From: Taxawa tesnikishii (nom. ined.)
Taxonomy: Eukaryota > Ascomycota > Dothideomycetes > Dothideales
Direction: 5' to 3'
Length of the DNA stretch: 64,000 nt
NCBI GenBank assembly: GCA_030247885.1
Contig: JAPDRO010000009.1
Coordinates: forward strand, 558,001-622,000
The notes beneath the pieces are model-generated. The model ran no database searches, was not told the origin of the DNA, and saw only the letters and a program-made list of their open reading frames with translations. Positions 3,120 through 60,705 of the stretch are shown here, piece by piece. Each line of letters begins with the position of its first letter. Positions within the stretch are counted from its first letter, which is position 1. The position numbers were made by a program, and so were the translations under genes.

Positions 3120-4878
3120 TCACCTCGACCTCAGATCCTCCTTATGCGCATCCCAAAAATTCCGACACGCTACGTGCATACTCGGTCCCTCGGCCCACCA
3201 CTCCCCGAAACTATCCTCAACATCCACGTCCACCTTGACGATGCGCTCTTCGCGTTTCAATCCGCACAGTCCACACGCATGCACCGACGCAATTCCCCTT
3301 CCCCGCCTTCGCGACTCTCACCGGCATCGTCTCCGCAATCTCCGGCACCTGCGGGAGCTGCGCTGCCCCAGCTCCTCCAGCCGAAGAAGTGAAAGTGGTG
3401 GCATTGGCACCCGCGACGGCATTCCTCAACCTCCCCACCTGCCCTTGCCACCCCCTCAGCACGTCCACGACCTCCCTGTCCTCGTGCCCGGCTTCGCTCC
3501 TATCGAGGCCCGCGAGCTTCATCCCCCGAGCGGCCAGAGACGGACGGGCCGATACGCATGCTCTGTGCCAAGAACCGGTCGCGCTTCCAGCGCTGTTTTC
3601 TGCCCGCGATTATGCGCGCGAGCACGCTTGAGAGGGCGATGTAGTTGCGCAGGAAGGTGTGTGTTTGCGGGGAGGAGAGGAGGGCGGTTTTTCGGGACGC
3701 GGTGAGGGCTAGTAGGGGCTGCAGGAAGTGCGTGTTGGCGAGGGTGAGGAGGGGTGTGAAGAGCGTCAGGAGGAGGGAGGGGGTGGGATGTTCGGGGGTG
3801 GAAGGGTGGTGGATCCGTCCGTCTCTGCGATAGGGGAGAGGATTTGAGAGGGAAGGGTGATGCTGTTGGCGAGTGTGGAGTCGGGTTCGGAGATGGATGC
3901 GGGGGCTTGGGTCGTGACTTGAGTTACCAGGGGTGCTGCACTGGGCTCGAAGTCGTCCCAAGCGGAGAAGTCTTCTTCTGGCGCTGGTGCTGGAGCTGTT
4001 GTTTTGGAAGGTGTTCTTCTGTGTGTAGCGGGAGCTTGTGAGAGGCGTACACTATTCGATATGGAGTTGGTCCGTCGAGCGTGACTCTTTACGGACGGCA
4101 GTTTTGGGCGTGGCGGAGTCTGAGCGACGGCGGCTGTGGGCACACTTGGTTTGGGTTCCCAATCGAGTGGGTCCATGGAAGAAGGCTGTGGTCTGGCCTG
4201 GTGTGACAGAGGTGTCGATTGAGGCACACGCTGTTGCGTCTTTTGGACTGTTGCAGGCTCGATTGGTACATCCCAGTCAAGCAAGTCCATCGACAACGGC
4301 TGGGGTTTAGCTTGACTTTGCAAAGGTGCTGAGTGAGTGGTGTTTTGCTGCATTCTGGGTGCTGTCGCTGTCGCTGTCACGGGCTCAGGTTGGGCATCTT
4401 CGAAGTCCCCGAAGTCATCATCAGGCTCGGAAGGGTCTTCCGCGTCGAACAAGATATCCGGATTCCGGGCGAATGGGTGATTGCTTGACAGCTTCTTGCG
4501 GCCGCTTTCAGTGAACGTCTGTGCACCCGAAGTCCTCGAGGCCCCTCCATCGTGCAAGTCCAGGTTGTTGAGCGCCGCGGGAAGATGTTGGCCTCGATCT
4601 GGAGCGGCAGATATGTTCGTCTGTTGCTCTTGAACGTCGTTTCCCGCGACCTCGAAGTCGCCCCAATCTTCAGTATCGTCAATCTGTGTCTCGTTTGCAG
4701 GAGGCTCAGTGGTAGCGAACCCGCTCCAGTCTCCTCTTGCAAAGCTGCTGTTGGTCTGGTGTGTGGATAAGGAATGTGAAGAAACTGAAGTCGCCACTTC
4801 AGGGGAAGGTTGAAGAGAAGCAGAGCTACTTGCGTTCGTCCCAAAATCCCCAAATTCGGCGAAAAGATCCCTTGACAT
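3120..4878 (-). CDS. protein with clathrin-adaptor ear-binding motifs (Laa2/aftiphilin-like)
   Basis: Uncharacterised protein of about 587 residues, probably a clathrin/AP-1 accessory factor. The N-terminus MSRDLFAEFGDFG and the later EDWGDFEVAG and DDFGDFEDA are acidic [FW]GDF motifs of the kind that bind gamma-ear/GAE domains. The middle is Pro/Ser-rich with repeated PLSMDLLDWD and PSSMDPLDWE. The C-terminal part is helical (LLLTLFTPLLTLANTHFL) and ends with HACGLCGLKREERI and ACRNFWDAHKEDL, a conserved-looking CxxC block. The start is the first ATG; upstream in-frame sequence has none. No introns needed, but the frame changes three times: at a G5 run (3779-3783), at a C5 run (3523-3527) and near 3305. 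Restoring 1, 2 and 2 bases gives a length divisible by three. Probably base-calling loss; pseudogene not excluded. Confidence 0.5.
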
Positions 4879-5265
4879 CTTAAAGTCGTGTCCAAAATTG
4901 ATATGATGGCACTTGTGTCTCGAATCCTTAATGGTTTTCTGTTTGTCGAATGATTCCAATGACTAAAGGTAAACGATACTATGGCTTTCCAGATATTTCC
5001 AATGTTTGGAATCAGCCCTGGTCGTTTCCCTAGTGCTTCGTCCGCTCGGATGTGTTGGTGGAGGGTGGTACGAGTAGATGAAGGGGTTGGACAACTGTAG
5101 ATGCTGCACGATTGGAGAAGATCCTGCCCGAAGCGGCAATTCGCGGGGCCCTCCCACTAGCTCGCCGCCAAAACCACCCTAGTGTCTTCTTCCGACTCCA
5201 AGCTCTGCATGTCACACAGAGCACTCCATGCCCACATCTCATAACACAGAGTATGACAGTAGACC
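4879..5265. other. divergent promoter region
   Basis: Region between two divergent genes (adaptor-motif protein to the left, TBC protein to the right), so it should carry both promoters. No clear TATA box or operator recognised. Confidence 0.45.
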
Positions 5266-7761
5266 ATGCGAACACTTGCCGAGTCTCAACGTAGCTGGGC
5301 GTTGCTTGAGTCTTTCGACACCCTCTCAGAACTGCGTGCAGAGGTACAGAAATCTAACGATTCCGTTGGCACATCGCCGGGATCACGGTCAGTATGTTGG
5401 AAGGTAAGCGGGCCAAGAATCAAGCGCATGTTACATACGTTGAACCATTTGATGGCAGGTCTTTCTTCTTTTTGATACGCTAGACCGTCCAACATGGTCG
5501 CGTCGTATTAAGGACAGTCGCTCGGCTTACGATTCCCTACGTACGCACTTTCTTCGCAACTTGGAGCACCCGGAAGAGATCACTTCCGGACTGGATCCGC
5601 TGAGTGAAGACGTTGAGGTAAGCATACTGACCTCCATCCGCTCCAACAGGCGCTCTGACAGCCCACTAAGCTATGAAAGTCTCCATGGGTTACCTTGCGC
5701 CAAGACGAGACTCTACGAGCCGAAATACACCAGGATGTCGAGCGATGTATGCCCGAGAACGATTACTTTCGCGAACCGGCCACCCAGATGACGCTTCTGG
5801 ACATCCTCTTCATCTTCTGCAAGCTCAATCCGGATGTCGGGTACAGGCAGGGTATGCACGAGCTCCTCGCCCCGATCCTATGGGTCGTAGAGCAAGACGC
5901 TCTCGCGCCGGAATCGTTGAGGGAACGTCCTTCTGGAAGTGATTTGCTGTGTCAAATTTGTGACGCGAAATACACTGAACATGACGCCTTTACACTCTTC
6001 AGCATAATTATGCAGAATGCGAAGTCGTTCTATGAGCAGGCTGCTCATGGTACACCTTCGGCGTTAATCAAGAAGACGGAAGGTGCTGCAGCACCGTTAG
6101 AGAACCCAATGGTCACACGGGTGCGGCGGATCTTTGAAGACTATCTGCCTCAGGTGGACCCAAACCTGGCGACACACCTCAAAGAGATTGACCTAATACC
6201 ACAGGTCTTCCTCATGTGAGTGGCCCAGTTCCGTTTGGTGATTTTGAGAGTACTGATATGATGCAGGCGTTGGATCAGACTGCTGTTCGGTCGAGAGTTC
6301 GAATTCGAGGATGTACTTAGTATATGGGACATCATCTTCGCCGAAGATCCGAGCTTAGAGATTGTTGATGTGATATGCGTAACAATGCTCTTGCGTCTTC
6401 ATTGGGACCGTAAGCAAAAGAGACGATGTTACACGCCGCGGGCTGGAGCTAAGACCACATACAGTGCTGGACGCAGACTACAACACCGCTCTTACTCTCT
6501 TACTCCGTTATCCCGCGTTCTCCAGCCCTCAGCAGCCGCAGATGCTAGCTGTAGATGCCCTCTATCTCCGTGCCAACTTCAACACAGAGGGTGCGAGCTA
6601 CCTCATCAAAAGGTACACCGGCAAATCTCCCGTCTTGGATAAAAGTCCCCTTCGGACGCATCGTTGGTACCCCAAACCCGATCTTTGCCCCAAAGCTTCG
6701 TCGACCGCCTGCAAGCTCCGCCACGCCTTGCTAGGCAGTCGAGTAACATCGAGGGGATCCTGCAGGATGCCGCTCGCGGTATGTACAGTCGCGGCGAGAA
6801 ATGGGGCATCAACAAAGCGGTGCGTGACGCGATGCAAGAAGTCCGCAAGGGAGTGCGGGAAATTCAATCTGTGCAAACCCCACAGGCGCCTCGGCGGCAC
6901 CTTCGTGTCGGTTCACGCAACAGCGTTACCTCCAGTGACTCAAAGGGTATGGAGATGGCGGCGAAGTTGGCTGGCTTGGAACAACGTAATGCGGCGCTGG
7001 CGAAAATGCTTGAGGGCGCGGTGTCTGAGCTATGGGAACACCAAAACCGAGTCGCAAAGGACAAGGATCCTGAGGATGAGGGACTTAAGGCGTTGAACGT
7101 GGCGATCGCTAAAGTTCAGTTCGCGCAGGTGTATCTTGCGGATCCAACTATTCCATTGCCAGCGGAGGAGAGGACAGGCAACACTGAGGCCGAGGTAGAA
7201 AGCTCACAAGAAAAGACTAGCGATGGCAGTCAGCAGAACGAAGTTCTGTTCGAGCAGCACGAAGAACAGACTCCCGACGCCCGCGACGCTGCAACAGCGG
7301 CTCAGGAGGCGGCAGAGCTACCTGCGCCATCAGCTCCGCCAAAAGCCACCAATACCAAGAAACCCAATACTCATACAGAGCACCAACCCGTCATACCCAC
7401 CAAAACACCCGAAACCCAGTCCGCCACACCCAAGCCCAACGAAGACAAGCCAAGCATCTCCGCGCCTCGTCCCTCGCTCGCACAATCCTCATTCTCCTGG
7501 ATGCTCGGCCAAGACCAGCGTCCCGTCTCATTCATCCGAGCCGGTCCACCACCGGCCGAGAAGCGGCGGAATAAAGGCTTTCTATTCGGAGACGAGGACG
7601 AAGATCCCTCGCAAGCTAAAAGCAGCACAGCGCCTGGGCGGAAGCGAGGGGACAGTAAGGCGAAGGGGAAGGGCAAGATGAAGCGGGCGGTGGAGGCGTT
7701 GGAGGATCCGGAGAGCTTTGACCTGAGCACGCTCGAGACGGAAGAAGAAGGGAAGGTGTAG
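5266..7761 (+). CDS. TBC-domain Rab GTPase-activating protein (TBC1D5-like)
   Basis: Rab-GAP of about 757 residues, likely acting in endosome-Golgi traffic. Exons: 5266-5403, 5459-5617, 5680-6215, 6267-6409, 6465-7761; all introns are GT-AG and 51-62 nt. The TBC domain spans roughly residues 40-290. The catalytic arginine finger is Arg121 in IHQDVER and the glutamine finger is Gln156 in YRQGM. WIRLLFGREFEFEDVLSIWD follows, the usual late TBC block. The tail has GMYSRGEKWGINKAVRD, a coiled segment, a disordered Pro/Glu region and a basic stretch GRKRGDSKAKGKGKMKR. The frame moves by one base near the C4 run at 6647-6650; one added base makes the total divisible by three. A 124-nt intron starting at 6612 is the other possible reading. 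TBC1D5 kinship is inferred from domain order. Confidence 0.8.
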
Positions 7762-8032
7762 TGAGGTGAAGGGTTTGTGCGATAGGAGCTGGGTGGGAAA
7801 GTACGGGACTAGAGGATGGCTAACGCTCATATAAATGAGCCTGTCGGCGTGATTATGTAGACAAGCAAACAGAATCCATTCACTCCGACAGGCTTTGTAC
7901 AACTGCCCTCGTTGCCGAGCTGCTGGCTTGTGTACACGCAATCGGATAGCGGAAAGTCTTGTTACGCGAATGATGGCCCTGGCAGTAGGTTGCTCAATTT
8001 CCATGAGCGTCTCGATCATTGCAACCTCAAGA

Positions 8033-9087
8033 TCAGCCGCCTTTCCAAAACTGGTACTCTCTCAAGTCCTCAACTTTAATGCTGCGAAGAGAGGCCGTTG
8101 GAAATCTCGGATCGAATCCAGCACCGCCAGTCCCTCGTTCGAATAAGACAAGGTGCTCAATCCCTGCCTTCTCCACGCTTTCCAGCACACGGGCGTAGTT
8201 TAATCCAACCTGCTTGATGTCGTGGCTGTCATCTGCCAAAGTAAACCGGCCTTGCATTTTCAGGAACGCCTACCTTGATCATTCAGCCATCTTGTCACAT
8301 CACCGGCGTCGCTCTCTCAACCCGAAAAATCCACGCGCGCACGAGGCACAAAAGCGCGAGAATGGAACAAGGAAAGGAGCGAAGCGGCTGACCTTGCAAA
8401 TCTCCTCCTTAGGATAAGGCTCGCTCATCCCCTTCCTCAGAGCACTGGAGTTTAGCTCCAGGATCCCCCATAACTGGCCACGAACTCCAGATTCCGCAAG
8501 ATGCGCGTCCACGCTTCATCCACGGTCTCGAAACTCCGCTCCGGATCATCGCTCTTCAATCTGATGAGATCGAAATGCCCGACCACGGGCGGCTTCAGCG
8601 CCTTCAACATCGCGTACTGCGCGTCGAAGTAATCGCGGTACAGCGCCTCGTCCGAGCCACCCGAGATGTCTCTGGCTTTGTAGTACATCTCGTGGTCGAA
8701 ATCGATCGGCACGCCGTGAACGTGATGTACGCTGCCGACGAAAAAGTCAAACTCATACCGTCCCATCAAATCCCCCATAACCCCTGCGAAAGAAGGTCGT
8801 ATCCATTCGCCCTCGAATCCGATTAGGATTTGGATCTGGGGTCGATACCTTTCCCGCAACCTCTTGGCCTCGGTGACGAATGCATCGAAGAGCTGAAAGA
8901 GGCCGGGACCTGTCTGACCTGCTGAGATCTCTTCAGGGTAGAGATCTGAAGACTCGGAGCGTGGCATGTGCTCGGTTAGTGCGAAGGATGCCATTCTGAG
9001 AGAGATGGCGCGCTGGACCATTTCCTCAAGGGTATTGGATGCATGTCCGCAGAACTGGCCGGAGTGGCTGTGGTGTGAGAAGGGCAT
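8033..9087 (-). CDS. HIS2: histidinol-phosphatase (PHP family)
   Basis: Histidinol phosphate to histidinol, the penultimate step type of histidine biosynthesis, cytosolic. The N-terminus MPFSHHSHSGQFCGHA carries the PHP metal-binding HxH. Further conserved blocks are ALTEHMPRSESSDLYPEE, LIGFEGEWIRP, FFVGSVHHVHGVPIDFD, VVGHFDLIR and the C-terminal GRFTLADDSHDIKQVGLNYA. Exon 1 is 8393-9087, intron 8270-8392 (123 nt), exon 2 8033-8269; about 310 residues, normal for the family. Between VASYGG and ILELNSSALRKG the frame slips one base at a run of five C (8465-8469, G on the coding strand). With one base restored the length is a multiple of three. The gene therefore looks intact in the organism and damaged only in this sequence. 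Confidence 0.88.
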
Positions 9088-17822: not shown

Positions 17823-19036
17823 TCAGCTCAACTTTGCCTTCCTGCTTCCAGTCAGTAAAACACGCCTCTCCAAAGAACACGGGACATCACGATGAACGTA
17901 CTGCATAACCTCCCTGGTAAGCTTCTCCCCTCCTTCTTGACCGGACTCAGTCTCCCGATCCTCCTCAACTTCTCAATCATCTCCTCGTCCCCAAAACTGC
18001 TGTTGTGTTCAAAATCCGGATCCTCGCCGTAAGCAACCCTCGCAGCGTCCACCAAGATCCTCGCCGTCATGCCAAACACCCTGTACCTACGCTGTCTGAG
18101 CGCTTCCGCCGTCTGCTTCTCGCCCTCCGACTGCGGCAGCTCCGCGTCCTCGTTCGCCGCCGTCGGATCTTCCCGGACGGATTTGGGTGCGTTCTTGGCG
18201 AGGAAGACGGACGAGGGGGTCACCGGGACGTGGAATTGGTGCATCCGCCAGTTCTCCTCGTGCCAGGAGATCCAGCTGCCTTTGTACCACTCTCCCGGCG
18301 GCGCTTCCTTTCCTCGCTCTTCGTCCCTGCTCCTCAGGAAATTGTGGAACGGCGCCGTGAATACGGCGGCGACTTCTTTGGCGTCCAGTTTGGGCAGCAG
18401 ATCCCGGGCCGGATCCACGTTCCTCGAGGCGCTGCCGTCGTTGCGGGTGGGGGCTTTGAGCCAGGCGACGCAGGGTCGCACGCCCAACTCCGTGACGGCG
18501 AGGTTGGCGGGGAGCTCGGTGAGGTGCTCGACCGTGTAACCGGCTGGGAGTTTATCGTCCGAAAGCGGGAGGCCAATCTCCTCAAACGCTTCACGGCGCG
18601 CTGTCATGAAAGGCGTTTCCTTTTCGAAGTCGGCTTTGCCACCAGGAAGCGCTGCATGTCCGGAATCTACTCGTAACCATCCAGAGTGTATTAGCGAATG
18701 CACGCCTGCCTGACTAAAAACCCAGCACAGCTTATGTGTCCTCCTTCTCTTATCATGGCTCCTGGTTCCACCCGCGCTACAACGTACAATTCTTCAACTT
18801 TGCGGACCTGATGGTAAGCACAACCCTCAAGTCGCCCTTCCGGTCTGCAAACAACAGGATCAGAACGGCCGCTCTCCGCGCGAGCGGGAGGCTGTGGTAT
18901 TGCGTGGGTGGGGAGACGAAGGAGCGCAGTCGGGCTATGGCGGCCTAGAGATGAATCGGAGTCAGCCGTTGTTTTGCAGACTGCTCCGGTATGGCTGATC
19001 ATTACTTACCGCTGATGTTGGTGAAAGAGCCGCCAT
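17823..19036 (-). CDS. Nudix hydrolase of the CoA diphosphatase type (PCD1/NUDT7-like)
   Basis: Probably cleaves CoA or acyl-CoA to 4'-phosphopantetheine and 3',5'-ADP. Exons: 19010-19036, 18788-18944, 18666-17902, 17823-17841; about 322 residues. Exon 1 codes only MAALSPTSA; exon 2 gives the strand AAVLILLFADRKGDLRVVLT; the intron 18667-18787 then joins to YSGHAALPGG. The Nudix box GGKADFEKETPF followed by TARREAFEEIGL matches Gx5Ex7REUxEExGU. The upstream ALPGGK and later GMTARILVDAARVAYG fit the CoA subgroup. Near the end the frame slips one base at a C4 run (17937-17940), giving GEKLTREVMQ. The proposed last intron (17842-17901) is optional since it is 60 nt and keeps frame. The ending KAKLS is close to, but not, a PTS1. 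Confidence 0.82.
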
Positions 19037-22048: not shown

Positions 22049-24000
22049 CTACTGAGAAGACTTGCCGCTCCTTGTGTTGACCTCAGTCTTGGCCACATCT
22101 GCGCTGGAGGTAACGCTCTCCGCAGCCTGGTTCTTGGCGTCAACCACAGCCTCCTTGGCCTTCTGTGCCTTGTCCTTGACCTGCTCCTTGCTTGGGGCCT
22201 TTGCGGCTCCCCCACTGACAGCACCGATAAGGATAGCCAAAACTCCGAAGGCCAGGGCACCGAGGGTGATGGCGACCTCTGGAACGAACTTGGCGGCCTG
22301 GATGGGGTCACGCTGGGCGAGGGTCATGAAGAGGTCGAACTTCTCGCGCATGTAGTGCACTGGGTCGTCGGCGAACTTCAGGTCCATTGGCGACTTGGGC
22401 TTCTCCTTCTCTGGCTCAGGCTTGGTAGCGTCCTCCTCGGATTTCTCGGACTTGCTCTTGACCTGGAAAGTCTCCTTGGCGAAAGCCTCGGCCTCCTCGA
22501 CCGAGTGACCAATGTAGATGTTGTCGAAAAGAATGTCGTTCTGCATGGTCCAAAGCTCGAAGCCGATCTGTCATAGTGTCAGTGCTGCTGGTGTATGTGA
22601 GAAAAGGCATCTGCTTACAGCGCCCATAGGCTCGAAGTTAGAAGGAGTCTTGTCCTCGAAGTAGGCGGGGTTGGGGATCTTGCGAGGCTTCCAAATGCCC
22701 TTGTAGGCGGGGTTGTCAATCAAAGGAGCGGTCCACTTGCCCTTGTAGGCGGGGTTCTTCTTCATGGGAGGAGTCCAGGGGCCACATCCGGAGACTTCGT
22801 TGCACTTGGGGTTAGGAACAGTAGGAGGAATCCAGTCACCATCCTCCTCGTCATCCCAGTCCTCGGGCTTCTCGGCCTCGGGATCAGGAATACTGGTGGG
22901 CTCGTCCTCAAGCCAGTCCTCGGGCATAGTAGCCTCCTCATCAACAACCTCGAATGGCGCCTCCTCGTCCCAGTCCTCTGGCTTGGTCGCATCTGGGTCG
23001 GTAATCTTGGCCTCGTCGATCCAGTCAGCAGGCTTCTTGTCATCCGGATCCTCAATCTCGGTTGCTGGGTTGACAGCTGGGCTGAAGTCCTCCAGAAGGC
23101 TACCGTTGCGCGAAGACTCTCCATCAATCTTGATCTCGTAGGTCTGGTCTGGCTTGACGATGAGGGTGTAGAGGGAGGTGGTCTTGCCAATGCGAGCCAT
23201 CGGGGTGTTCTTCAGGTGCTTCTCCTCGTATTCGCCGGTGACTGGGTTCTTGTGGTTGAAGATGAAGTGCACCTAGTTGCCTTGTCAGCAGATGGTCTTC
23301 GCGGGTTTGGCGGGGAAATGTACCTTGTTGGTAGCACCGCACTTGTCGGGACCGAACATGATGACATAGGGGATGCGTTGGAGAATTCCTCAGCGTGAAG
23401 AGCTGCGTTCTCCCGGAGAAGCTTCATGTAAGCACCTCCGCACTCCAGGCCAGCTGTGTACTGTTAGCGTTGTGTCATACAACCCTAGACCAAGAGGATC
23501 CATACACTGCATCTTGACCTCATACTGAACGACCAGGGTGTTGTCTTTGTTGTCGATGGCCTCGGGAAACTTGGCAGAAATGGCGTGGTGAGCAGCCTTG
23601 TCCTTGAGGACGAGACCCTTGTCGCCCTCGATACCACGGAGGACGGTGGGCTCCTCGACGGACCACTTGCCGACGAATGCCCAGTCCTCCTCAGTGCCCT
23701 CCTTCTTCGCGTGAGAGACCTTCCACCTGGAGTCCCAGTCGTCCGTGAACTGCTCAAGGAAGGGGGCCTTGAGTGTGGTTGGCTGCGGGAGCGTTGTTAG
23801 CACGAGCCGAGCAGCAGATGTCACGACTGCGATGGACCCACGGTGAAGGTTGGCTTGGAGACGGCGGAGGAGGTCACCGACTCAACAGCGGAGGCAGCGG
23901 AGGAAGAGACCGCAGTTGCGGTATCCTCGAGATCGTCCAGAACATCTGCCCTGGAGACGGCAGCAACGGCGCCGAGAGCGAGAAGGTTGGTGACACGCAT
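22049..24000 (-). CDS. calnexin, ER lectin chaperone
   Basis: Membrane-bound ER chaperone that holds monoglucosylated glycoproteins. Exons: 23842-24000, 23506-23782, 23324-23453, 22619-23272, 22049-22567; about 579 residues. The signal peptide is [18 protein letters not shown]. Lectin-domain blocks include [20 protein letters not shown] and [19 protein letters not shown]. The P domain (about residues 265-400) shows the alternating repeats [27 protein letters not shown] and then [23 protein letters not shown] single membrane segment ([20 protein letters not shown]) and a charged cytosolic tail follow. In exon 3 the invariant NASPYVIMFG is broken by one missing base in a G4 run (23369-23372, C on the coding strand). 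Adding it makes exon phases agree, so the break is almost certainly a sequence error. Confidence 0.95.
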
Positions 24001-32827: not shown

Positions 32828-34199
32828 ATGGACCAGTCTCAATCTCCAGGAGAGCGGCCAAGGGCTCGCTCGCGCGGAATCAGCTTTCGCAGCGATAAGA
32901 GCAGCGGCTCCAAGCCGAAGGTGGACATTAGTGAGACTGCTGCGGAGAAGGCGCGGCGCGACAGTATCTGGAAGGGCGGATCGAAGGCCAACCCGAACGC
33001 TGCCATGAGTGAAGCTCAGCCCGGTGGTGCGTCCTCGTTTTCACTTGTACCAAATTCTGTGTTTTTGTTGTTACAACCATGGCTGTTGCTGCTCAAGTCG
33101 ACGAGAAAGCGCCTGTCGCTGACACACCCAAAGCTGCTGCTGTCTTCGAGAAGTCTACCCTTGCGTCCCTGCGTTCAATTGAGCACAAAGATGCCGATGG
33201 CAACCCTATCAGTAAGTCACACACTTAATCCGAACATTTCGGTCGCAGTATAGCTGACCAAAAGGGCAGCGGACCCTGATCTCTCCAATCCCACTCGGCC
33301 ACGTTGGGAGAGACCGCTGGACACGATTAGGTCTTTCGAGAGAGCCATTGATGGCGACTACAAGCGCAAATCAATGAGCAGGGCCGGTAACAACATGACA
33401 TCCTGCGTTACGCCTCTCCAATTTCACTTCTGACTCGTATTATAGCATCCTACGACCCTAGAGAACACTTCGCCGGCGGCGGCGGCGGTGGCCATTCGAG
33501 AAGGAGCAGCTACTATGGTGGTGGGTATAACCATAGTACATATCAATCCACAACTGAGGTTCTTCGTGCCCCAGGCTACGACTCTGGCTCTCAGGTTGGA
33601 GGCTACTACGCCAACCGCCGTCCAGACAGTTACTACGACAACTCAAGCCCCATTCCGTCTGCACCACCAACCAGAAACCGGTATGGGCAACGTGTGACGA
33701 GTGACACTCTCCCTCGTTCGGCGAGTCAAATGGGCTCCAGAAACGGCTTCTACCCGCAACACGGCTACCAGCAATCACACGACACCGTCTACACCAACGG
33801 CAGTGACAGCACCGGTCCGTGGGCCAATTCTACCGATCCTACTAGCAGCGAGAACAGCTCAATCGATAAGATGCATGCCAACGGCAAGCGGGTGTCGCCC
33901 CAACCGGTAGACAACTACGGATACGACGGATACAACGGCAACACTATCAGGGAAGAGTATGGACAGGACAACGAAGCTGGAGTGTATGGAGGACCAAGCG
34001 GGTACAACGGAGTGTCGGCAGTTCCTTCCCATGCCGCCCCTGCGCCAGCGGCGCGCGCTCCTATCAAGCTCGGTGGAGGGGTGGCACCCCTAGCTACGCT
34101 TCCCAAGGCGGTAGTCTTCCAACAATGACTCGTGGAACCCCAGGCAAGGAGGAGAAAAAGAAGGGTTGGCTCAGCAGACGATTCTCTAAGAAGGAATAA
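32828..34199 (+). CDS. DUF2406 family protein
   Basis: About 393 residues; function unknown, family widespread in ascomycetes. Exons: 32828-33023, 33098-33211, 33270-33386, 33446-34199; introns 58-74 nt, all GT-AG and in phase. The DUF2406 core is split over the first exons: LASLRSIEHKDADGNPITDP then PTRPRWERPLDTIRSFERAI and DGDYKRKSM. The C-terminal half is disordered, Tyr/Gly/Asn-rich (SSYYGGGYNHSTYQ, NYGYDGYNGN), and ends with the basic KKKGWLSRRFSKKE, a likely membrane- or nucleic-acid-binding tail. The frame slips one base in a C4 run (34087-34090) between GGVAP and SYASQGG; one restored base makes the length divisible by three. The start is the first ATG after a C/T-rich leader. Confidence 0.78.
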
Positions 34200-40630: not shown

Positions 40631-43600
40631 CTAGAAAGTCTCACTTTCGAGGCTTGATACCGAACCTGCAACATAGCGATGTCAGCTTGCGCTGGCCTGT
40701 ATCGTAGATGGGAACCTTTGCTCACCTCGACTGCTCGCAATTGGCTTCCTCCTGACGGTTCCCGAAGTCTCAGCCGCCTTGGGCGAGCTGCCGTTCATTG
40801 GCCTTGGGCCGGTGATCTTACGGGCCACCGTCTGGCGTGGCTGGGTAGCCAGAGTCTGAGGAGGCTCAGGAGTGCGCTAGCAAAGATCAGCAACAACGAC
40901 CAGTCCGAGTTAACGTGGAACACCTACATCTCTAGGATCTGTTTCCATACTGTACCTCACACTTTCCACTTCTTCGATCGGCTCCAGCAGATGACCAGAG
41001 CCCAGCGGCGAGGAATAGTACATTCTGCCATAGCTGTGTCCAGGACGGCCGTACTGCTGCGGTTCCGGCTCTAGCGCCGGCTTTTGTGGCACTAAGGGAC
41101 CGTCGTCACGATCTTTGCGGGCAGAGTAGTCGTCGATGGGGCTCAGCGGCTGACCCTTGCCGGTGTTGCCTCCAAGCTTATTTGTCCTGGCAAGGGACAA
41201 TGAAGGGTTGGAACCCCACTGTAGAGGATCAAAGTCGCTGTTGTCGGTACGCTGACTGAGATCACTGTCAGTGCCCGTTGGGCCACGCTCCTTGTCGCCA
41301 CTGAAGCTCTGAGCCTGAGACTCCAGGTAAGTCTGGTGACGGTGCGTGGGTCCGGGCCTGGGTTGCGGGTGCTGCAGAAGCAGGGAATTGCGGTGGGCTT
41401 GGTACTTCGGATCGTCAAACTCATCCTCGTCCAGGTTTCCGCGCAAGCTCTGCTGCGTTAGCAGCCCAGGAGAGGCGCCGCGGTTGTCCTGTGGTATCGA
41501 ACGGGCCTGAGACACACCGGACGCAGCATCCGGGATCAGTGGAGATGGCGTGCGCGTGAGTTGGCTGACTCCACTTCGAACACTGCGGGCGTCCATATGA
41601 GCAGCCTCATCCTCGCGTGCGAACGACTGGATAGACCGCAAACGATCGTCAGACTGCAACACATAGTTCTGACCATAGTATCCACGATCGCCAAGGCTGT
41701 CCACGCTGCTCCGTGAAGCGTCTGAGTACGCTCGGTCCTTGGAACCAGTTTCGATGAAATCATCGCGGGTGTCCGGCGCTGAAGATGCGGTGGTCTTTGA
41801 CCAGCGCGATATCTTCGGTATTCCAAGGATAGAAGAGCTGTTGGACTTATGCTTCCGTTGCTTGTCTGTCATCTTCGGAGTGGTTTCAAGGCTCAATGGG
41901 CCCCTCAGAGCACCGTTCTGTTGCGGCGGCGTGCCGACGGCACCTGCTGCTCCCCTACGCAATTCCTGGGTGGGGGTCAGGAGTTGTTCGTTGTTCTCGA
42001 ACTGGTTGTCCAGTATGTCAGACTCATGCGGCTCGAGTTCATCTTCGTCGCCTTCCATCACAGTGCTGACACGGTTGAAGGAGCCCCGACGGCCATCATA
42101 ACCAGAGTGAAAGTTGCGCTCTTCCCTTGTCGGCGTGACGGAGAAATGCTGTGACTGGTTTGGGGTAGACGAGGTTCCTGCCTTTCCTGAAGGCTCGTAT
42201 CCCGAATCAGGAGCCGCGCGGAGCTTTTCGTACGAATCGAGGCTTTCGCCGGTGTACGACCCGCGGGGACGGCTGGCGCCTTGCGATTCTTTCAGTTCTT
42301 CCACGTCGCCTAAAAGTTGGTTGAGCATGTCTTCAATCTTGGTAAGATCCTTGTCACCTCGCATGCTGAGACCTTTGAGGGCACGTTTGAAGACATTTTT
42401 GCGTTTCGTAGCGATCTCCTGCTCTTCATAGTTGGCGCGAGGAGTGCGCAGTGCGGACGGCGGCTGCGGACGAGGACCACCAAGGACCTTTTGAACTGTT
42501 ATCTCCGCGTCCCGATCGGTGTTTTGCATGATCATCTTGTCCTCTTCGGCAATAAACCTCTTCAACGCCTCGAACTCTTGACGCATCTCCGCTGCACTCC
42601 GCACCAGTGTCACGAGGATCTCGGTGTCACGAGCGTTGCGTTGAGCGTCACGAACCGTAAGGTGATCCATCAAGGCAACAACATCCTTGGATTGAATGCT
42701 GTCAATGCCTTTGCCGGTGGCGCTGTCGTATACTGGGGAAGCCATGCCATGAGAGTTGCCGCTCAGGTGACGCTGGTGCTTTCTGCTAATGAATGGATCG
42801 TCCGCCTCAGCACCCAATGTAGCCTCATACTCTGCCATATCCTCATTCCTGTTGGGTCTGTGGGTCGAGTAGCCGGCTTTGGGGGTCGCTGCGCCGTTCG
42901 AGCGGGCGTATGCGGCAGAGGCATAACCCTCATCGCCATATTGGGCTGGGCTGGTGGGCGTCACGCTCTGACTCTTGCTCATGTATACAGCTTGAGCTTG
43001 GCGAACGTCTGGCGTCAAGCGGTCGTATTCATCTACCATACTTGTCCGATGGGACAAATCATATTGCGATGGTGTCTTTTCCCTATCTTGAGCCACATAT
43101 TCGGCCGCCAAAGCGCCGGCAGCAGCTCCTGTAGCAAGAAGAGCCCCTTCTCGACGCGATGGCTGTGTTCCGAGTATTGATCGTGCTGTTCCTCAACTCT
43201 ACCACGACTAGGTGGGGGCGTGCTGTCGTAAGACCACCGTTTGTTGCGATCCTCAGGGCCCTGAATCTCGGAAGGATTTGTGTTGAGATCCGATTCATCG
43301 TCGAGCCCGTGACCAATCTCCGGCATAGGATCCCCAGCAATGGGGATACCACTCGCTCCCATTTGGATTGGCGTTGGCCCTCTGAACGATTGTTCCTCGC
43401 GCAAGCTCTTGGTCTCGCTGTGTCTGGGCGAAATAGTAGCCATAGCGCGTTCCTTTGACGTCTGGGCTGATAGAGATTGAGCCTGGCTGCGAAGGGCGCT
43501 CCAACGGCTACCAACAGAACTCCCTTCCGCTTTGTTCGCCGTGTCAGTCTCATGCGGTGCTGGAGAGCTTTGTCTAATCTCATGCAGACTCTCAGCCATA

Positions 43601-46154
43601 CGGTCACGGTACTTCGCATTTGACAACTTGCTCTCGGTGTCTTGTGACGAACGCACGCTGCTGATCATCGATGGCTCGACCAGCGATGCGACTGCTGATT
43701 CAACCGCGACAGGAGTGTGCACGTAATCCGGATTTGCACCAATACCGGCGCGGACGTCTTGCTCCGCGTTGATGCGATCGTTCTGGGAGGAGCCGTAGCT
43801 GTCTTCAGTGTACTGAGTAAGGCGTCGCTCATCGAAGGATTCTTGAGCAGAGGACTCAGCCATAGAGTGGCGGTAGCGCTCGTTCTCTTCGTGCTGTCTT
43901 TGGAACCATTCCTCCATCTCTTCTCTAGGAGTCTCGTCGTCATAGCTTAGCTCTGACTCTGGACGCATGTCTCTACCTTCAGATTTAGCAGCGAAGCTTT
44001 CAAACCAAGAGGGCTTTTGCGGGACCTGGAAAACTTCGCACTAGGGGATGAGGAAGCCGAATGAAGAGAAATGTCAGATTGCCTTTTCCGGGCCTCGGAT
44101 CCGTTGGAGGTGAGGGACATGTTGCTGCGGGTGCGCAAGCCTTCTGGAATCAGAGGATCGCGGTGATCATCCCTCAAGCTTACAACGCTGTGCACCGGAC
44201 TCAGGGCTCTTTGGGTGGGAGAGCTTTGATGATTAACCACGTTGTCCACCATCCGCTCCTCGGCAAACTTCCCCAGACCAGCCGCCGTAAGTCCCGCGAA
44301 TCTCGCTTTAGATGCAATGCTTCTCGGACTTTGTGCATCGACCTCATGGGACGAATGCATGCTGTGGCTGCTTCCCAAGCTCCGCTTAAGAGCGACAGGT
44401 GTCCGTGTAGGAGTTCTTGACACTGGCGACATAGCTTCACCGAGTGAACCTCGGGAGACTTCCCTGATTGGTGTCTCTGTACCTCTGGATGATTCAGGTC
44501 TTGTGGTCGAGGCGGATAGGATTGAATCTCTGGTGAGCTCCGAATCGTTGATGCCACTGGCCATCGGCATTGGTGGAATCTCTTCCCCATGGTAGACGTC
44601 TTCAATTGTCTCAGCAATGCTTGTTGATCTGCTCCGGCTACTGCGACTCTTGCCGCGCTTCTTCCTCTTCTCCCTGCTCACGTCGCCTTGCGAATCATGA
44701 TGCCGAAGAGCAGCGGCGGTGAGGACGCCACCCGCAATACCTGCTGCTGCTGCATCTCGCAAGCGGTGGCTGTCCTTGCTGCTCCTCCTATGGATGCTCT
44801 GCTCTTCGACACTCTCCGCTCTCGAAGAGGGCCTATGTCTGTAGCTCTTTTCCGAGACCGGTACAGATTCTCTGCTCGACTTTCTGACTCTGCGTTCAGA
44901 ATCACCACGAGAAAGCACCTCACCCGGATCATCGTCGTACCGGTTGAGTACGACCTTTGGCTTACTCGCGAAATTGGGTGAGCTCGAAGACTTGGAAACC
45001 CGTCGCGTAATCTCCTCGCCATACGAACTTCTGTCTGTCTGGGATGATCGTCGACTAGTCGGTTCGAATTCACGGAGGTTTCTGTCCGCCTTTTGCTCGT
45101 GCTTCAGTTGGTTGATCTCTGGCAAAATCAGCCTCTTGACGGTATCCTCCACCATCTCCAGAAGTTTTGGGTTGTTCAGCGAGACCTTGGAAGTACCAGA
45201 ACGGTAAGAGGTCTGACTAGGCGTGACGTTGGATGACAGCAAGCTCGAATCGACACCGCTGACAGATTCATCATACGTCTTCGAAGACCGTCGTCGCCGT
45301 TCTTTGGAAGGTTTCGTGTCCGGCTCATACTCGATGCTCTGTCCTCGGTCGTGCTTGCGCCTCGTTTCACGAGAGTTGCTGGCTAGCTTCTCCATAACCT
45401 TTTGTGTGATACGCTCTCGACTCAAACTCCGACTTCTCCTGCGCGTGGGTGCTGCCAGATGTTCCGTTATGACGGCGTCTTCCTCTTCTCTGTCAAGGCT
45501 TCTGCTACGACGACGTTGCAAGTCCGACTCTGTATGACCTTCGAGCATACTATCAGGCGGCATGGATGAGATTTGGGATACGTTGGTTAGATAGCCAAGA
45601 TCCCGCGAGTGTCTTGACTGAGACAGATCGCTGCCGTTGTTCAACACCTCGATCTCCACCGGTGGTCGACCTGAGAGGTTGGATTCAGAGGACTGCGATA
45701 ATTCTGTTCCTTCCACAGCCAATGGGGCTTCGGTGTTCTTGTTGCCGAGCGATATGCGCCTGGTGTAAGAAGGCTTGCGATCCTTGCCAATGCCGGTAAT
45801 CTGGACTGAATCGCTCACCGCGCTTTTGTTCTTGCGCGCAGCAGAGGGTGTAACCTTGACACGGACGCTAGGCCGCGATCGCGATTTGTCTCCATTCTTG
45901 CTTGCTTCGAAATACTCTATCAACAGTGACGTCTGGGATTTCTGCCTTCCGTGGTGTAGCAGGCCAGAACCAGGGCTCAACTTCTGCGTCGAGATGGTAA
46001 TAGGGCTGCCGTCTTCGGGTATGGAGAAGGATGTTTTGTCCGTCACTCGCGAAACGTTCGTCCCCAGATCTGTTCCAACCATGCTCCTGTCGTCCATGGA
46101 GCTTGGATCTTCGGTAGGCGCGGGAAGCGGAGGCCGTTTGGTGTCAACACCCAT
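40631..46154 (-). CDS. very large disordered protein, uncharacterised
   Basis: About 1804 residues from one 5.2-kb exon (40928-46154) and two small 3' exons (40726-40876, 40631-40665). The N-terminal 100 residues look most conserved: TSLLIEYFEASKNGDKSRSR then PSVRVKVTP and VQITGIGKDRKPSYTRRISL. The rest is rich in Ser, Arg, Glu and SP sites, with short Ala/Gly hydrophobic patches set in it (DAAAAGIAGGVLTAAAL, GALLATGAAAGALAAEYVA). Helical stretches occur (LLEMVEDTVKRLILPEINQL; IEDMLNQLLGDVEELKES). The frame slips at a T4 run (44015-44018) and a C4 run (43144-43147). With both bases restored the large exon is exactly 1743 codons and the last splice phases fit. It resembles Leashin/involucrin-repeat-type tethers in composition, but I do not assign it. 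Confidence 0.6.
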
Positions 46155-46502: not shown

Positions 46503-46531
46503 GTTGATTGATTGACTGATTGATTGATTGA
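46503..46531. repeat. TTGA tetranucleotide repeat
   Basis: Seven TTGA/CTGA units about 350 bases upstream of the large disordered-protein gene. Read on the other strand it is TCAA/TCAG, the same motif as the microsatellite at 32015-32064. Confidence 0.85.
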
Positions 46532-49056: not shown

Positions 49057-50929
49057 ATGGGCGAGAAAGAATTGGAGGAGGGTCCCTCATCCCTCCCAAG
49101 CCCCTCCGCTTCCCCTCATCGCGCTCCTCAACCCCACCCTTGACCAAAGAATCAGCGCTGGAACCAGACATCACCGCCGTGGGAGCGCCCCCTCAAACAC
49201 AGAACAAGTTCTCGAATTGGCAAAGAGCCATTCTTCGCACAGTTCAAGCGCACCTGCCGAGTCACGCGCACACCCTGCTCCGTCAATAGCGAGCCAAGCG
49301 CGCGAACCGATCATAGTCCCGAGGGATCAGAGGAGGGGTTTACTGGCGAGGTTTGCGGTGTTATCAGAGGTCGAAGAGCCAAAGGACTATCCGCGAAAGA
49401 CAAAATGGACAATCACATTCATCGTTGCCCTAGCCGGCGCCGCGGCTCCAATGGGTAGTGGGATCCTGCTACGTACGTTCTCTCTTTCGAACTCTTCCAT
49501 ACACGAATGCAGTTAACGGATGACCTGCCAGCTGCCCTGGAGGATATCACACGCGCGTTCAACAGTACCCCAACCGTGGTCAACCTCTCCGTCGCAATGT
49601 ACATGCTGAGCATGTCCATTTTCCCGCTCTGGTGGTCCTCTTTCTCCGAAACCCTGGGTAGACGCACCATCTACATCAGCTCCTTCGCGCTCTTCACCGT
49701 CTTCAACGTGCTCTCAGCCGTCAGCACTGATACCGCCATGTTCATAGTTATGCGGATCCTGTCTGGTGGAGCGTCTGCAAGCGTACAAGCAGTGGGGGCA
49801 GGGACGATCGCCGATATCTGGGAGGTGAAAGAGCGCGGAAGGGCCATGGGCATATTCTACTTGGGACCGCTGTGTGGACCGCTACTGTCGCCGATTGTTG
49901 GAGGTGCATTGGCTCAGGGCCTGGGCTGGCGCGCGGATATGTGGTTCCTGGTGGTATACGGCGTGTTGCTTTGGATTGGACTTTTGTTTGGACTGCCCGA
50001 GACGCTGAAAGCCCGCAAGTCGGTTGCGGCGGAAGCAGAGATGGAAGTTGTGGCTGGTGTTGCTGGTGCGAATGGGGAAAAAGGACCCGAAAGGCCGACA
50101 TTGCAGCGCATGACCACGAAACAGAGCGTGCAGGTCAAGACAAAGAAGTACGCCTCGATACTCCGCCGATGTTTGCTGGATCCACTTGCCATCATTTTGC
50201 ACCTGCGCTCGCCGGCTGTAGCGATAACGGTGTACTACGCAAGCATCACGTTCGGATCGCTATATGTGCTCAACATCAGCGTGCAGCAGACATTCTCTGC
50301 CCCGCCGTATGGCTTCTCAACCATCATAGTCGGTTTGCTGTACATCCCTAACAGCACGGGTTACTTCCTCGCGAGCGTCTTCGGCGGTCGTTGGATTGAT
50401 TCGATTATGCATAGAGAGGCCAGGAAAGCGGGACGCTTTGACGAGAATGGGAAGCCGCAATTCAGGCCCGAAGACCGCATGAAGGAGAATGCATGGCTCG
50501 GCGCAATTATGTTTCCTGCTGGTCTCCTATGGTATGGATGGTGTGCGGACAAGGGGGTCTTCTGGCTTGCTCCGGTACGTAACATGAGAGGTTTGAGAAG
50601 TAACAGCGAGTGCTGACCTCTGCTAGATGATTGCCAACTTCTTCTTCGGCGTGGGCAGTATGCTCATTTTCGCCATGGCGACGACCATGCTGACAGAATT
50701 CATGCCAAAGCAAGCGTCCCACGGGATTGCCGTGAATAACTTCGTCCGAAACATCTTCTCCTGTGTGGGCAGTGTTGTAGCCGAACCCCTGATTGTGGCG
50801 ATCGGCAATGGATGGTTGTTTACCATCCTCAGCCTTTGGTGTTTCTTCAGCGGGATTATAGTGATATTGGCCATGAAGAAATTCGGTGCTCGATGGCGCG
50901 ATGCCATGGACAGAAGGCTGAATGGATGA
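49057..50929 (+). CDS. MFS transporter, DHA1 drug/polyamine H+ antiporter type
   Basis: Plasma-membrane proton antiporter of about 594 residues, Qdr/Tpo-like. Exons: 49057-49472, about 49513-50574, 50627-50929. The cytosolic N-terminus (MGEKELEEGPSS) leads to REPIIVPRDQRRGLLARF and the first membrane helix (TITFIVALAGAAAPMGSGIL). Then FSETLGRRTIY (motif A), ADIWEVKERGRAMGIF and GPLLSPIVGGALAQGLGWR (motif C) follow. The large middle loop contains KSVQ/KTKKYAS-type basic sequence. The last exon gives the final helices (FLRN-to-FFSGIIVILAM). The frame slips twice near the start, at C4 (49132-49135) and C5 (49188-49192). The first intron is only 40 nt and leaves the phase one base off, so the exact join near 49473-49512 is unresolved. 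Substrate unknown. Confidence 0.82.
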
Positions 50930-51232
50930 TCGGGATGATCTCCTGGGATGTTTTGTTCTTACATGCGTGGGCTGGCATAGCGTGGCGTTTGGATCAACAT
51001 TTCTGGATCATGGTCGCGGTAGGGATGTTTTCAGTTGAGGACTTTTTGATAGCCTCGGGCAAGAACTGATTGACGAACCGCTCCCATAGTTCAGTTGAAT
51101 AGGTTGTTGTGGCCTTGTGGTCAAGCCCAGTGACGTTCCTGAAAAGGCGGCCATCCAAACGATATGGAAAGCAAGCGACATCCCGGTCTGATGCCATGTG
51201 ATCTATCTTGGATGAAGTTGCCGTGCTGGTAG
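50930..51232. other. intergenic, convergent 3' ends
   Basis: 300 bases between the MFS stop and the TEN1 stop; presumed 3' UTRs only. Confidence 0.5.
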
Positions 51233-51711
51233 TCAATTTGGGATCGCCTGTTGAAACTGTTTCACGGATGCTTCGTACTCATCCAGCTTGACGCTGCCAG
51301 CGGACCACAGCATGATGGCCTGGACGTAGGCATGTCTCGGGACAGAGCGAGAGTGCTTCGAGTCTGAAGCTTTCCTGGGGACTTTCACAAGATATCCGAC
51401 GACGTTGATCCAAGCACCGACCTCCAGCTCAGTATGCTTCACTGTCTCAAGCACTGCTGTGATGTCGACGTAGACTACAGTATTCTTGCCGGGTGTTGTG
51501 GCGGAATGCACGAGTTCCAAAGTAGCAGTGGAAGCGTTATAGTTTTGAACACTAAGGCGTCGTTGATACCTCTTCTCTGCTGCAGACGCGTGATGTCTTA
51601 CCATCCTAGGAAACGGACTTTCTGGCCGGATTCCGTATACGGTTGCATGTGCAGGAGCTGTGAGAGTAAAACAAGCCGGCTGGCATTAGGCTGTTGGTTT
51701 CGATGCCCCAT
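51233..51711 (-). CDS. TEN1: CST complex subunit Ten1 (telomere capping)
   Basis: Small OB-fold protein that works with Stn1 (and Cdc13/CTC1) at telomere ends and in priming fill-in synthesis by polymerase alpha. Exons 51602-51711 and 51233-51551, intron 51552-51601 (50 nt, GTAAGA donor), 142 residues, normal for Ten1. Residues 1-37: MGHRNQQPNASRLVLLSQLL and then GQKVRFLGC, the first OB strand. The second exon gives VQNYNASTATLELVHS, VYVDITAVLETVKHTELEVG, AWINVVGYL and VQAIMLWSAGSVKLDEYEAS, which follow the fungal Ten1 pattern closely. An earlier acceptor would make a 32-nt intron and lose the match. The ATG at 51711 is the only one giving the SRLVLLSQL start. Intact. Confidence 0.85.
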
Positions 51712-52171: not shown

Positions 52172-53127
52172 ATGTCGGGCTGGGGCCTAGGCGGATGGTT
52201 TGGAGGTGGAGCAGCGAAAAGAAGGATGCGCCAAAGAACGCCATATTGCAGTTGAGGGGTACGCTGGACATGTTGACCAAGCGGGAGAAGCATTTGCAGA
52301 ACCAAATGGACGAGGAGGATGCGAAGGCGAGGAAGTTTATTAGCACGAATAAAGCCGGTATGTTCTCCGTGTACCCGCGTCACGGACGCGCCTTACTCAG
52401 CTCGAGCGATGCTGCCTTCATGCACAATCTGCTGAGAGAGGAGAGTGTTTTTGTGACTGAGTTCATGTGTTGATATCTGCGTGTACAGCCGCCAAAGCTG
52501 CTCTTCGGCGAAAGAAGCAGTTCGAGCACTCGCTCGAGCAGACCTCTGCTCAGATCATTACCATCGAGCGGGAAATTAGCAGCATAGAGACAGCAAATAT
52601 CAATAAGGAGACATTGGACGCCATGAAGAACGCTTCCAACGCCATGAAGACCATTCACGGTGGTCTCACGATAGACAAGGTGGATGCGACAATGTACGTT
52701 CAGCAACAGTCACCTCAAGCAAATGCAGTTACAACGTTCCGAACTATTGCTGATATCATGGGACAGGGAGGATCTCCGCGACCAACACGCCATTGGCGAG
52801 GAGATTGCCGAAGCGCTTACGCAAGGCGCTATGGCCTCCGGGGTGGACGACGACGAACTGGAGGCGGAAATGGCAGACCTGCAACAAGAAGAGCTGGACA
52901 ACAAGATGCTCAAGACGGGCACTGTACCCGTATCAGATCAGCTCAACAGGCTACCGAATGCCGCACAGGGAGAACGTGAGTACAATCTACCACTTAAACG
53001 AAGAGACCGTCCTACAAAGGAGCTGTGCTGACAAGCATTCGCAGTCAAGGGCAAGACACCTGTGAGGGCGGAGGAGGACGACGAGGAAGAAGAGTTGCGA
53101 AGGCTACAGGCCGAGATGGCCATGTAG
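52172..53127 (+). CDS. SNF7: ESCRT-III subunit Snf7/Vps32
   Basis: Main filament-forming subunit of ESCRT-III, acting at endosomes in multivesicular-body sorting and in Rim101/PacC pH signalling. Exons: 52172-52357, 52489-52693, 52767-52975, 53045-53127; about 227 residues. The N-terminus MSGWGLGGWFGGGAAKK is the membrane-inserting ANCHR-like start. Helix 1-2 includes ILQLRGTLDMLTKREKHLQN and then AKAALRRKKQFEHSLEQTSA. The MIM-type C-terminus is EEEELRRLQAEMAM. The frame slips one base at an A4 run (52217-52220); AAK and KDAPKNAIL then join, and all splice phases agree. An ATG in the other frame does not give the known N-terminus. The family call is certain; the base loss is probably a sequence error. 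Confidence 0.93.
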
Positions 53128-58616: not shown

Positions 58617-59321
58617 GTACAAGACATTTCCAATTTGATTTCGTGATACGCACAGCTAAAGGAGCAATAACAGGAGGATTGACAGTAAGAAATTCATTTC
58701 GTGTGTAGCGTTTCTACACATACAGCTGTACCAACGCCAGTTAGATCGAACAAGTCTTGTTTCCCATAGGGTAGCTCGTGGGACTTTGGGTTGTAGTTTT
58801 GTTGTGATCCCTGGTAAGCAAGACACGTCGCCTGCGGCTGCACGTGCCATCATTGCTATAGGCACGAGTATCAGTCAGATTCAAATGCCAACATTCCGGC
58901 AGCCGCTCTAGGGTGTCCATCGGGTTTGTTGGTTACGGGTCAGATACGTGCCATGACTTCTCGATAGAGATTACACCTGCGATAAACTTAGCGGTAGGCG
59001 AAGCCGCATTCGCCGTTGCGTAAAGGATGAAAGGTCAAATGCCCATCAACTTGGCTATCATTGCATTGCGCTGCCTTGTGATGTAGTGGTACTATTGTGA
59101 ACAGAAAAGGAAGAACGCACATATCACATTCACCAAGGGTGATTGGTCATTCTTGTTTCAAGCGCGTGAAACGCTGCGCGTCAACCCCGGAAAATGTACG
59201 CTGCGGGAGCTTTATCGAAACCAACAACAACCGCAACTCGACATGACATGAACTTTCACTAGCGACCCGTCCTCTTTGCTGCAAGCCTGGGTATCAATTC
59301 AACACCCAAATCACCGGCACG
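58617..59321. other. divergent promoter region
   Basis: 700 bases upstream of ARP1 (+) and of the Cys-rich gene (-). No repeat, RNA or clear promoter element seen. Confidence 0.45.
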
Positions 59322-60705
59322 ATGGCCGACCTTCACAATGCGCCCATAGTGCTCGATAACGGTAGCGGTACGATTCGAGCAGGATTCGCAGGCGACGATA
59401 TTCCCAAATGCCATTTCCCCTCGTATGTCGGTCGGCCGAAACACCTGCGCGTCTTGGCTGGAGGATTGGAAGGTGACACCTTCATCGGTCAAAAAGCACA
59501 AGAACTACGTGGTCTTCTCAAGATCCGGTACCCCCTGGAGCATGGCATAGTCACAGATTGGGACGACATGGAGAGGATATGGCACCACGTTTATACGGAA
59601 GAGCTGAAGACATTGAGCGAAGATGTAGGTACGGCCATTTGCTCCACGAGCGCAGCGGACTGGACGCTTCCAGAGCGAGGCTCCAGGCTAGCTGCCATAC
59701 TTGAAAATTCCACGAAGTGCTGATAGACCTCGTCGACGATAGCATCCCGTACTCCTCACTGAACCTCCGCTTAACCCTCGCACAAACCGCGACACAGCAG
59801 CTCAAATCTTGTTCGAAACATTTAATGTGCCCGCTCTCTTTACATCGATACAGGCCGTACTCTCCCTCTACGCATCAGGCAGGACGACAGGAATTGTGCT
59901 CGATGCGGGTGATGGTGTTTCGCATGCAGTGCCTGTCTACGAGGGGTTCGCCATACCGAACAGCATACGCAGAATAGATGTGGCAGGCAGAGACGTGACA
60001 GAGCATCTACAAACACTTCTGAGGAAGAGCGGTTACGTCTTCCACACAAGCGCAGAGAAAGAGGTGGTCAGGATGATCAAGGAAAAGACGAGCTACGTTG
60101 CGCTCGATCCGCGGAAGGAGGAGAAGGAGTGGATGACTGGAGGCGCAAGACAGGACAACAAGCTGGTGGAGTATATTCTGCCAGATGGCCAGAAGCTCAA
60201 GGTATCTCCATGACGGCTACATGCGTGTTCTTGCGAGAAGCCGGTGCTAACGCGTCGTCTCAGATTGGAGCCGAGCGCTTCAGGGCTCCAGAGATTCTCT
60301 TCGACCCGGAAATCATCGGCTTAGAATACCCCGGCATCCACCAAATAGTGGTCGACGCTATTGGCCGGACAGACATGGATTTGCGGAAATCACTTTTTGG
60401 AAACATTGTTCTATCCGGGGGCTCGACCCTCACCAAGGGTTTCGGTGACCGCCTGCTGCACGAGGTGCAACGGCTCGCTATTAAGGACATGCGGATCAAG
60501 ATCTTCGCACCGCCGGAGAGGAAGTACAGTACATGGATAGGGGTAGCATTCTGGCAGGGCTAAGCACATTTCGCAAGGTGGGTTTTACCTAATGCCAACG
60601 GGGGTCACGCATGACCTTTACACGTCGCTGATGAGTATGCAGATGTGGGTGAGCATCGACGACTGGCACGAGAATCCGGACATTATCCACACCAAGTTCG
60701 CTTGA
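59322..60705 (+). CDS. ARP1: actin-related protein 1 (centractin), dynactin filament subunit
   Basis: Forms the short filament of dynactin, the dynein activator for nuclear migration and organelle transport along microtubules (ro-4 in Neurospora). Exons: 59322-59624, 59743-60201, 60264-60577, 60643-60705; about 379 residues, normal for Arp1. Nucleotide-binding blocks are [18 protein letters not shown] (residues 9-26), [20 protein letters not shown] and [31 protein letters not shown] and [10 protein letters not shown] distinguish it from distant Arps. The end is [20 protein letters not shown]. Just before exon 3 ends, [17 protein letters not shown] is broken by one missing base in a G4 run (60540-60543). 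Restoring it makes 380 codons and all phases agree. Confidence 0.95.

What the first reader, a model, noticed from the sequence alone, without database searches (positions are those of the whole stretch)
3120..60705. Recurrent one-base frame losses inside short homopolymer runs of conserved genes
Twelve sites show the same defect: the protein continues in another frame exactly as if one base were missing from a run of 4-5 identical bases. Sites: 3779-3783, 6647-6650, 8465-8469, 17937-17940, 23369-23372, 34087-34090, 43144-43147, 44015-44018, 49132-49135, 49188-49192, 52217-52220 and 60540-60543. They hit invariant blocks of calnexin, ARP1, SNF7 and HIS2. In nearly every gene one added base per site makes the total coding length divisible by three and the intron phases fit. 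Real decay would not spare everything except homopolymers, so base under-calling is the likely cause. Any automatic annotation of this assembly will split or truncate these genes.
Basis: partly seen in the sequence, partly recalled or inferred. Interest (0 to 1): 0.75.

Follow-up and report, generated by a model that had tools for sequence, protein, structure and literature searches.

The report
Sequencing errors mimicking broken fungal genes
Many genes in this fungal genome look broken by one missing letter, but the pattern is what a long-read sequencer produces when it shortens runs of the same letter, so the breaks are very probably errors in the data and not biology.

Summary
Eleven of the 12 listed places are runs of 4-5 identical bases; 17937-17940 reads TTGA, with a run ten bases away. 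Homology supports the frame switch in calnexin and ARP1, and less strongly in HIS2; coding statistics support five more. Site 52217 is plausible; 34087, 44015 and 49188 are unproven. In 244 kb of this contig a gene-model HMM finds 36 missing-base against 7 extra-base switches; 23 of the 36 lie within 12 b of a run of 4 or more, where 18% is expected. The best evidence is not genic: run counts fall by a factor of 0.18-0.27 per added base up to length 5, then drop at 6 (A/T 215 to 18, G/C 157 to 8), in coding and noncoding DNA; whole-genome counts agree. Nanopore callers tested in PMC5889714, all but one, capped homopolymers at 5 bases (passages). Two CCT-family genes on other contigs show the defect too. 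This is a known type of assembly artefact. 13 of the 36 breaks are not near a run, so 'only homopolymers' overstates it.

The parts
3779..3783 (-). run of 5 at a frame switch in the gene 3120-4878 (weak LAA2-like match)
   Evidence: HMM switch at 3787; statistic 10.8 missing vs 0.0 extra, but neighbouring runs at 3794 and 3833 score 9.9 and 7.3; Pfam YBL010C_LAA2 E 0.012, below its cut-off
6647..6650 (+). run of 4 in the gene of a RabGAP-TBC protein, 5749-7761
   Evidence: statistic 5.4 vs 1.8; the run at 6641 scores 6.7; alternative is an 83-b intron GTACAC...AAAG; Pfam RabGAP-TBC
8465..8469 (-). run of 5 at the frame switch in a HIS2-like histidinol-phosphatase gene
   Evidence: upstream frame PHP domain; both frames within one alignment to 3dcp_A, downstream stretch weak on its own; stop-bounded interval 61 b with this run only; coding statistic 0.0
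17927..17930 (-). run of 4 near the end of a NUDIX gene (Pcd1-like by recall); the finding gave 17937-17940, which is TTGA
   Evidence: statistic 9.0 missing, 5.9 extra; HMM put the switch at 17967; Pfam NUDIX
23369..23372 (-). run of 4 at the frame switch in calnexin
   Evidence: Pfam Calreticulin positions 1-115 in one frame, 116-369 in the next; statistic 10.9 vs 2.0
34087..34090 (+). run of 4 near the 3' end of a DUF2406 gene; unproven
   Evidence: statistic 2.8; a run at 34078-34081 scores 4.4; Pfam DUF2406
43144..43147 (-). run of 4 in a large low-complexity protein gene, 40682-46154
   Evidence: statistic 5.9 vs 0.0; alternative intron GTGGCT...CAAG
44015..44018 (-). run of 4 in the same gene; unproven
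   Evidence: statistic 2.8 vs 0.0; alternative 83-b intron GTGCGA...CCAG
49132..49135 (+). run of 4 in the N-terminal region of a transporter-like gene; ambiguous
   Evidence: statistic 5.5 missing, 4.1 extra; one frame is open throughout
49188..49192 (+). run of 5 in the same gene; unproven
   Evidence: statistic 1.4
52217..52220 (+). run of 4 at the start of SNF7; plausible
   Evidence: downstream frame matches yeast Snf7; upstream frame gives an N-terminus recognised from memory; statistic 0.7
60540..60543 (+). run of 4 at the frame switch in ARP1
   Evidence: solved ARP1 chains read straight across the junction; stop-bounded interval 76 b with this run only; coding statistic 2.1
   Evidence: HMM event at 25630; the upstream frame keeps the repeat pattern to about 25585; DNA

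Best explanation
The genes are intact in the organism; the assembly is wrong. The consensus was probably made from long nanopore-type reads whose base caller resolved runs longer than about five bases poorly, and it was not fully corrected with accurate reads. Runs of six were often written as five and some runs of five as four. In an exon each such loss moves the reading frame. Shown here: frame switches in the missing-base direction, their link to runs, the drop in run counts from length 5 to 6 in coding and noncoding DNA, and the same drop in whole-genome counts. Inferred: the platform and caller type, and that each individual site is an error.
For: 36 missing vs 7 extra switches in 244 kb (133,465 coding bases), 23 of 36 within 12 b of a run of 4 or more vs 18.3% expected (p values). 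With stop read-through allowed at the same cost as a shift: 35 missing, 6 extra, 3 stops. At 1099 runs the missing-base statistic reaches 6 nats in 48 and the extra-base one in 11; at 836 control positions 8 and 2. Run counts from length 5 to 6: coding A/T 68 to 1, G/C 78 to 2; noncoding A/T 147 to 17, G/C 79 to 6. Whole genome: A/T length 6 3839, G/C length 6 747; estimated 6/5 ratios 0.16 and 0.054. E. coli K-12 control, 50 kb: 0.26 and 0.16 (the second rests on 31 and 5 runs). Conserved genes, usually essential (recalled), are hit: RPP0, calnexin, ARP1, CCT-family genes. PMC5889714 (passages): all callers tested there except Scrappie capped homopolymers at 5 bp; PMC5770995 (passages) explains why k-mer callers do so; PMC7500977 (passages) reports such gene breaks in nanopore-only fungal assemblies.
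Against: No reads were available. There is no clear pile-up at length 5 (n5/n4 0.238 A/T, 0.18 G/C), as a hard cap would give. Some runs of 6 or more survive, and noncoding A/T runs of 7 (14) are not below the Markov expectation of about 10. 13 of 36 missing-base calls are not near a run. The E. coli control is not a fungus, and no fungal control assembly was at hand. The HMM was trained on the same sequence.
Confidence: 0.96

Rival explanations
1. Real gene decay: the strain has truly lost bases in many genes, for instance through replication slippage in a repair-deficient lineage.
For: Slippage in runs is a real mutation type; a few breaks (RecQ-like gene near the contig end on L002) lie outside runs and could be genuine.
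Against: It would break RPP0, ARP1, calnexin and CCT-family genes at once, with downstream frames still conserved. Stops are rare, 3 vs 35. The shortage of long runs in noncoding DNA needs a separate cause.
Confidence: 0.02
2. Programmed ribosomal frameshifting at homopolymers, so that the genes are functional as written.
For: Frames continue close beyond the breaks, and the runs could serve as slippery sites.
Against: Sense-strand runs are of C, G, A or T at different sites, without a common context that I could see (by inspection only). It does not explain the drop in run lengths in noncoding DNA.
Confidence: 0.01
3. Not exclusive of the main reading: some listed sites are not shifts at all but short introns or a different start codon (6647, 43144, 44015, 49132, 49188, 52217).
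For: A shift-free HMM path exists at each; 52217 has a downstream ATG.
Against: The intron alternatives at 6647 and 43144 end in AAG; among 184 predicted introns A stands at that position in 6% (from a model that itself assumed 4%). The statistic favours a shift by over 5 nats at 6647, 43144 and 49132.
Confidence: 0.3

Closest known systems
Homopolymer truncation by k-mer/event-based nanopore base callers (PMC5889714 and PMC5770995, passages seen)
   Same: run counts drop above five bases, for A/T and G/C, in coding and noncoding DNA; losses dominate
   Different: here the cap leaks (runs of 6-7 and a few of 10-18 survive), no pile-up at 5, and runs of 4 are also implicated, so that runs of five seem to lose a base as well; the platform is not recorded in the data given
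Gene-breaking indels in nanopore-only fungal assemblies (Drechmeria coniospora, PMC7500977, passages)
   Same: conserved single-copy genes broken by single-base errors, mostly in homopolymers
   Different: that study saw more over-prediction of run length after polishing; here losses dominate

Membership tests
long-read homopolymer under-calling artefact | losses outnumber gains | tested here: met
   36 vs 7
long-read homopolymer under-calling artefact | losses concentrate at homopolymers | tested here: met
   23 of 36 within 12 b vs 18.3% expected; 48 of 1099 runs vs 8 of 836 controls at 6 nats; 13 of 36 are not near a run
long-read homopolymer under-calling artefact | run-length spectrum truncated, noncoding DNA included | tested here: met
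   (noncoding A/T runs of 7 excepted); whole genome
long-read homopolymer under-calling artefact | pile-up at the cap length (expected of a strict cap, not of every under-calling platform) | tested here: not met
   n5/n4 not raised (0.238 A/T, 0.18 G/C); so a leaky shortening, not a hard cap
long-read homopolymer under-calling artefact | present on other contigs | tested here: met
   breaks at GGGG in 2 of 9 CCT/HSP60-family loci, on C1 and C6 (read by eye)
long-read homopolymer under-calling artefact | accurate reads show the longer run | not testable with these tools
   no reads available
pseudogene decay | nonsense changes accompany frame losses | tested here: not met
   3 stops vs 35 missing-base events
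programmed ribosomal frameshifting | common slippery sequence at the sites | tested here: inconclusive
   runs of different bases with varied flanks by inspection; no motif model was run

The most novel reading that the evidence does not exclude
A lineage in which runs above five bases are really rare in all DNA and many conserved genes are read across one-base gaps by frameshifting.
Probability: 0.01. Interest if true: 0.9.

Novelty: not a real feature. Interest (0 to 1): 0.1.

Why it matters
Automatic annotation of this assembly is likely to split, truncate or invent introns in many genes; my own HMM did so at several sites. Rough extrapolation from this one contig: a net 29 events in 133 kb of coding DNA, about one per 4.6 kb, so perhaps a few thousand frame breaks genome-wide. 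The run-length drop is a quick, annotation-free check that flags such assemblies.

Tried and rejected
In one search the printed 'coding' figure wrongly includes intergenic states; only its event counts are used. The gap in L023 between CCT-family matches looked too narrow for an intron, but the HMM gives a 52-b intron there. A C-terminal HMM event in L025 looks like a false positive (a CCT end recalled from memory). HMM events in L023 (3760) and L024 (3743) lie in neighbouring genes and were not followed. In one search the interval search printed no row for 23369, and several rows for some other sites. Three paper searches were made; one search was seen only as a listing, and three papers as passages. 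I did not try to identify the species. says that the genome has no relatives here; I saw no tool that holds reads, and I did not look for a second assembly.

Full report
Setting. The window is bases 558001-622000 of contig C34 (1,232,081 b) of a 29.4-Mb, 34-contig genome, with spliceosomal introns (median 59 b, 184 predicted) and fungal-type genes; I take it for a filamentous ascomycete by inference. For comparison 18 further stretches of 10 kb from the same contig were read, 244 kb in all.

What the sites are. One search shows that 11 of 12 listed places are runs of 4-5 identical bases. The place given as 17937-17940 reads TTGA; the run meant is probably 17927-17930. By homology the frame switch is firm in calnexin (profile positions 115 and 116 meet in two frames) and ARP1 (the solved ARP1 sequence runs on without a gap). 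HIS2 is supported less strongly: the downstream frame matches weakly on its own, but one alignment to 3dcp_A spans both frames and the stop-bounded interval is 61 b with a single run. By coding statistics a missing base is supported at 3779, 6647, 17927, 23369, 43144 and 49132; at 3779 and 6647 neighbouring runs score similarly or higher, and 49132 is ambiguous. SNF7 (52217) is plausible; for 34087, 44015 and 49188 I could not show a shift.

How often. A three-phase coding HMM with introns and costed frame shifts gives 36 missing-base and 7 extra-base switches in 133,465 coding bases; 7 of the 36 are in the window. Of the 36, 23 lie within 12 b of a run of 4 or more (18.3% of coding DNA); of the 7 extra, 2 do. 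When in-frame stops may be read through at the same cost, there are 35 missing, 6 extra and 3 stops. Tested run by run, 48 of 1099 runs reach 6 nats for a missing base and 11 for an extra one, against 8 and 2 of 836 control positions; neighbouring runs are not independent. The HMM gives both false negatives (it hides shifts in false introns) and false positives.

Cases outside the window. RPP0 (L016: relatives match from residue 2 in a frame other than that of the ATG), a TauD-type dioxygenase (L018: chain residues 198 and 196 meet at the break) and an SDR (L006: chain 128 and 132) show the same; pyridoxal kinase (L006) fits, but its downstream match is only 2-3 bits. These four were chosen because solved relatives were likely; they are 4 of the 17 missing-base events of at least 2 nats outside the window. 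On other contigs, nine CCT/HSP60-family loci were run through the HMM. Reading the frames by eye, two have breaks at GGGG: one on C1 (L024, which the HMM had explained by an intron) and one on C6 (L022). Their subunit identity and the conserved blocks are recalled, not tested.

The run-length spectrum. This test needs no gene model. Counts fall by a factor of 0.18-0.27 per added base to length 5 and then drop: A/T 902, 215, 18; G/C 874, 157, 8 for lengths 4, 5, 6. If the 4-to-5 ratio continued, 14.4, 12.9, 37.4 and 15.6 runs of 6 would be expected in coding A/T, coding G/C, noncoding A/T and noncoding G/C; 1, 2, 17 and 6 are seen (Poisson p from 9e-6 to 5e-3). Whole-genome counts agree: A/T 6, 7 and 8 or more are 3839, 1229 and 515; G/C 6 and 7 or more are 747 and 442. 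With length-5 totals estimated from flanked patterns the 6/5 ratios are 0.16 and 0.054, while the next steps are 0.32 (A/T 7/6) and 0.59 (G/C 7 or more/6). E. coli K-12, 50 kb, shows 0.26 and 0.16. Against the simplest picture: noncoding A/T runs of 7 number 14, no fewer than a Markov model gives (about 10). Selection on coding DNA would not by itself make such a drop in noncoding DNA.

Mechanism. Passages of PMC5889714 say that the base callers tested, except Scrappie, capped homopolymers at 5 bp, the k-mer length; passages of PMC5770995 explain it by merged events. Passages of PMC7500977 describe fungal nanopore-only assemblies with conserved genes broken in homopolymers, and long false runs put in by polishing. 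The absence of runs of 8 and 9 beside runs of 10, 10, 12, 12 and 18 in the sample may be of that kind. Against a strict cap: no pile-up at 5, and survivors at 6 and 7.

Verdict. Corrections: one coordinate is off, four sites are weaker than stated (one of them, SNF7, plausible), a fifth (49132) is ambiguous, and not all breaks are at homopolymers.

Noticed in passing
window 25575-25600 (-): A frame break in a gene with Ser/Thr-rich repeats (24690-28420) with no run of 4 or more at the break; the repeat units in the gene suggest where the frame is lost.
   Followed up: partly
L002 1700-5549 (start of contig C34): A RecQ-like helicase gene (by eye) near the contig end has a one-base frame break outside any run of 4 or more; it may be a subtelomeric gene in real decay.
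   Followed up: no
L011 about 4939: A forkhead-like gene (by eye) has a missing-base frame break with no run of 4 or more right at the break.
   Followed up: no
L002 924, L007 3559 and 4119, L014 9919, L018 9908: Runs of 10, 10, 12, 12 and 18 bases occur although none of 8 or 9 is present in 244 kb; possible polishing artefacts.
   Followed up: no
L002 1296-1420: A tandem array of about 24-base units, most with a run of six T.
   Followed up: no
window 50994-51648 (-): A small gene that may encode an OB-fold protein of the Ten1 kind (impression from memory, not tested).
   Followed up: no
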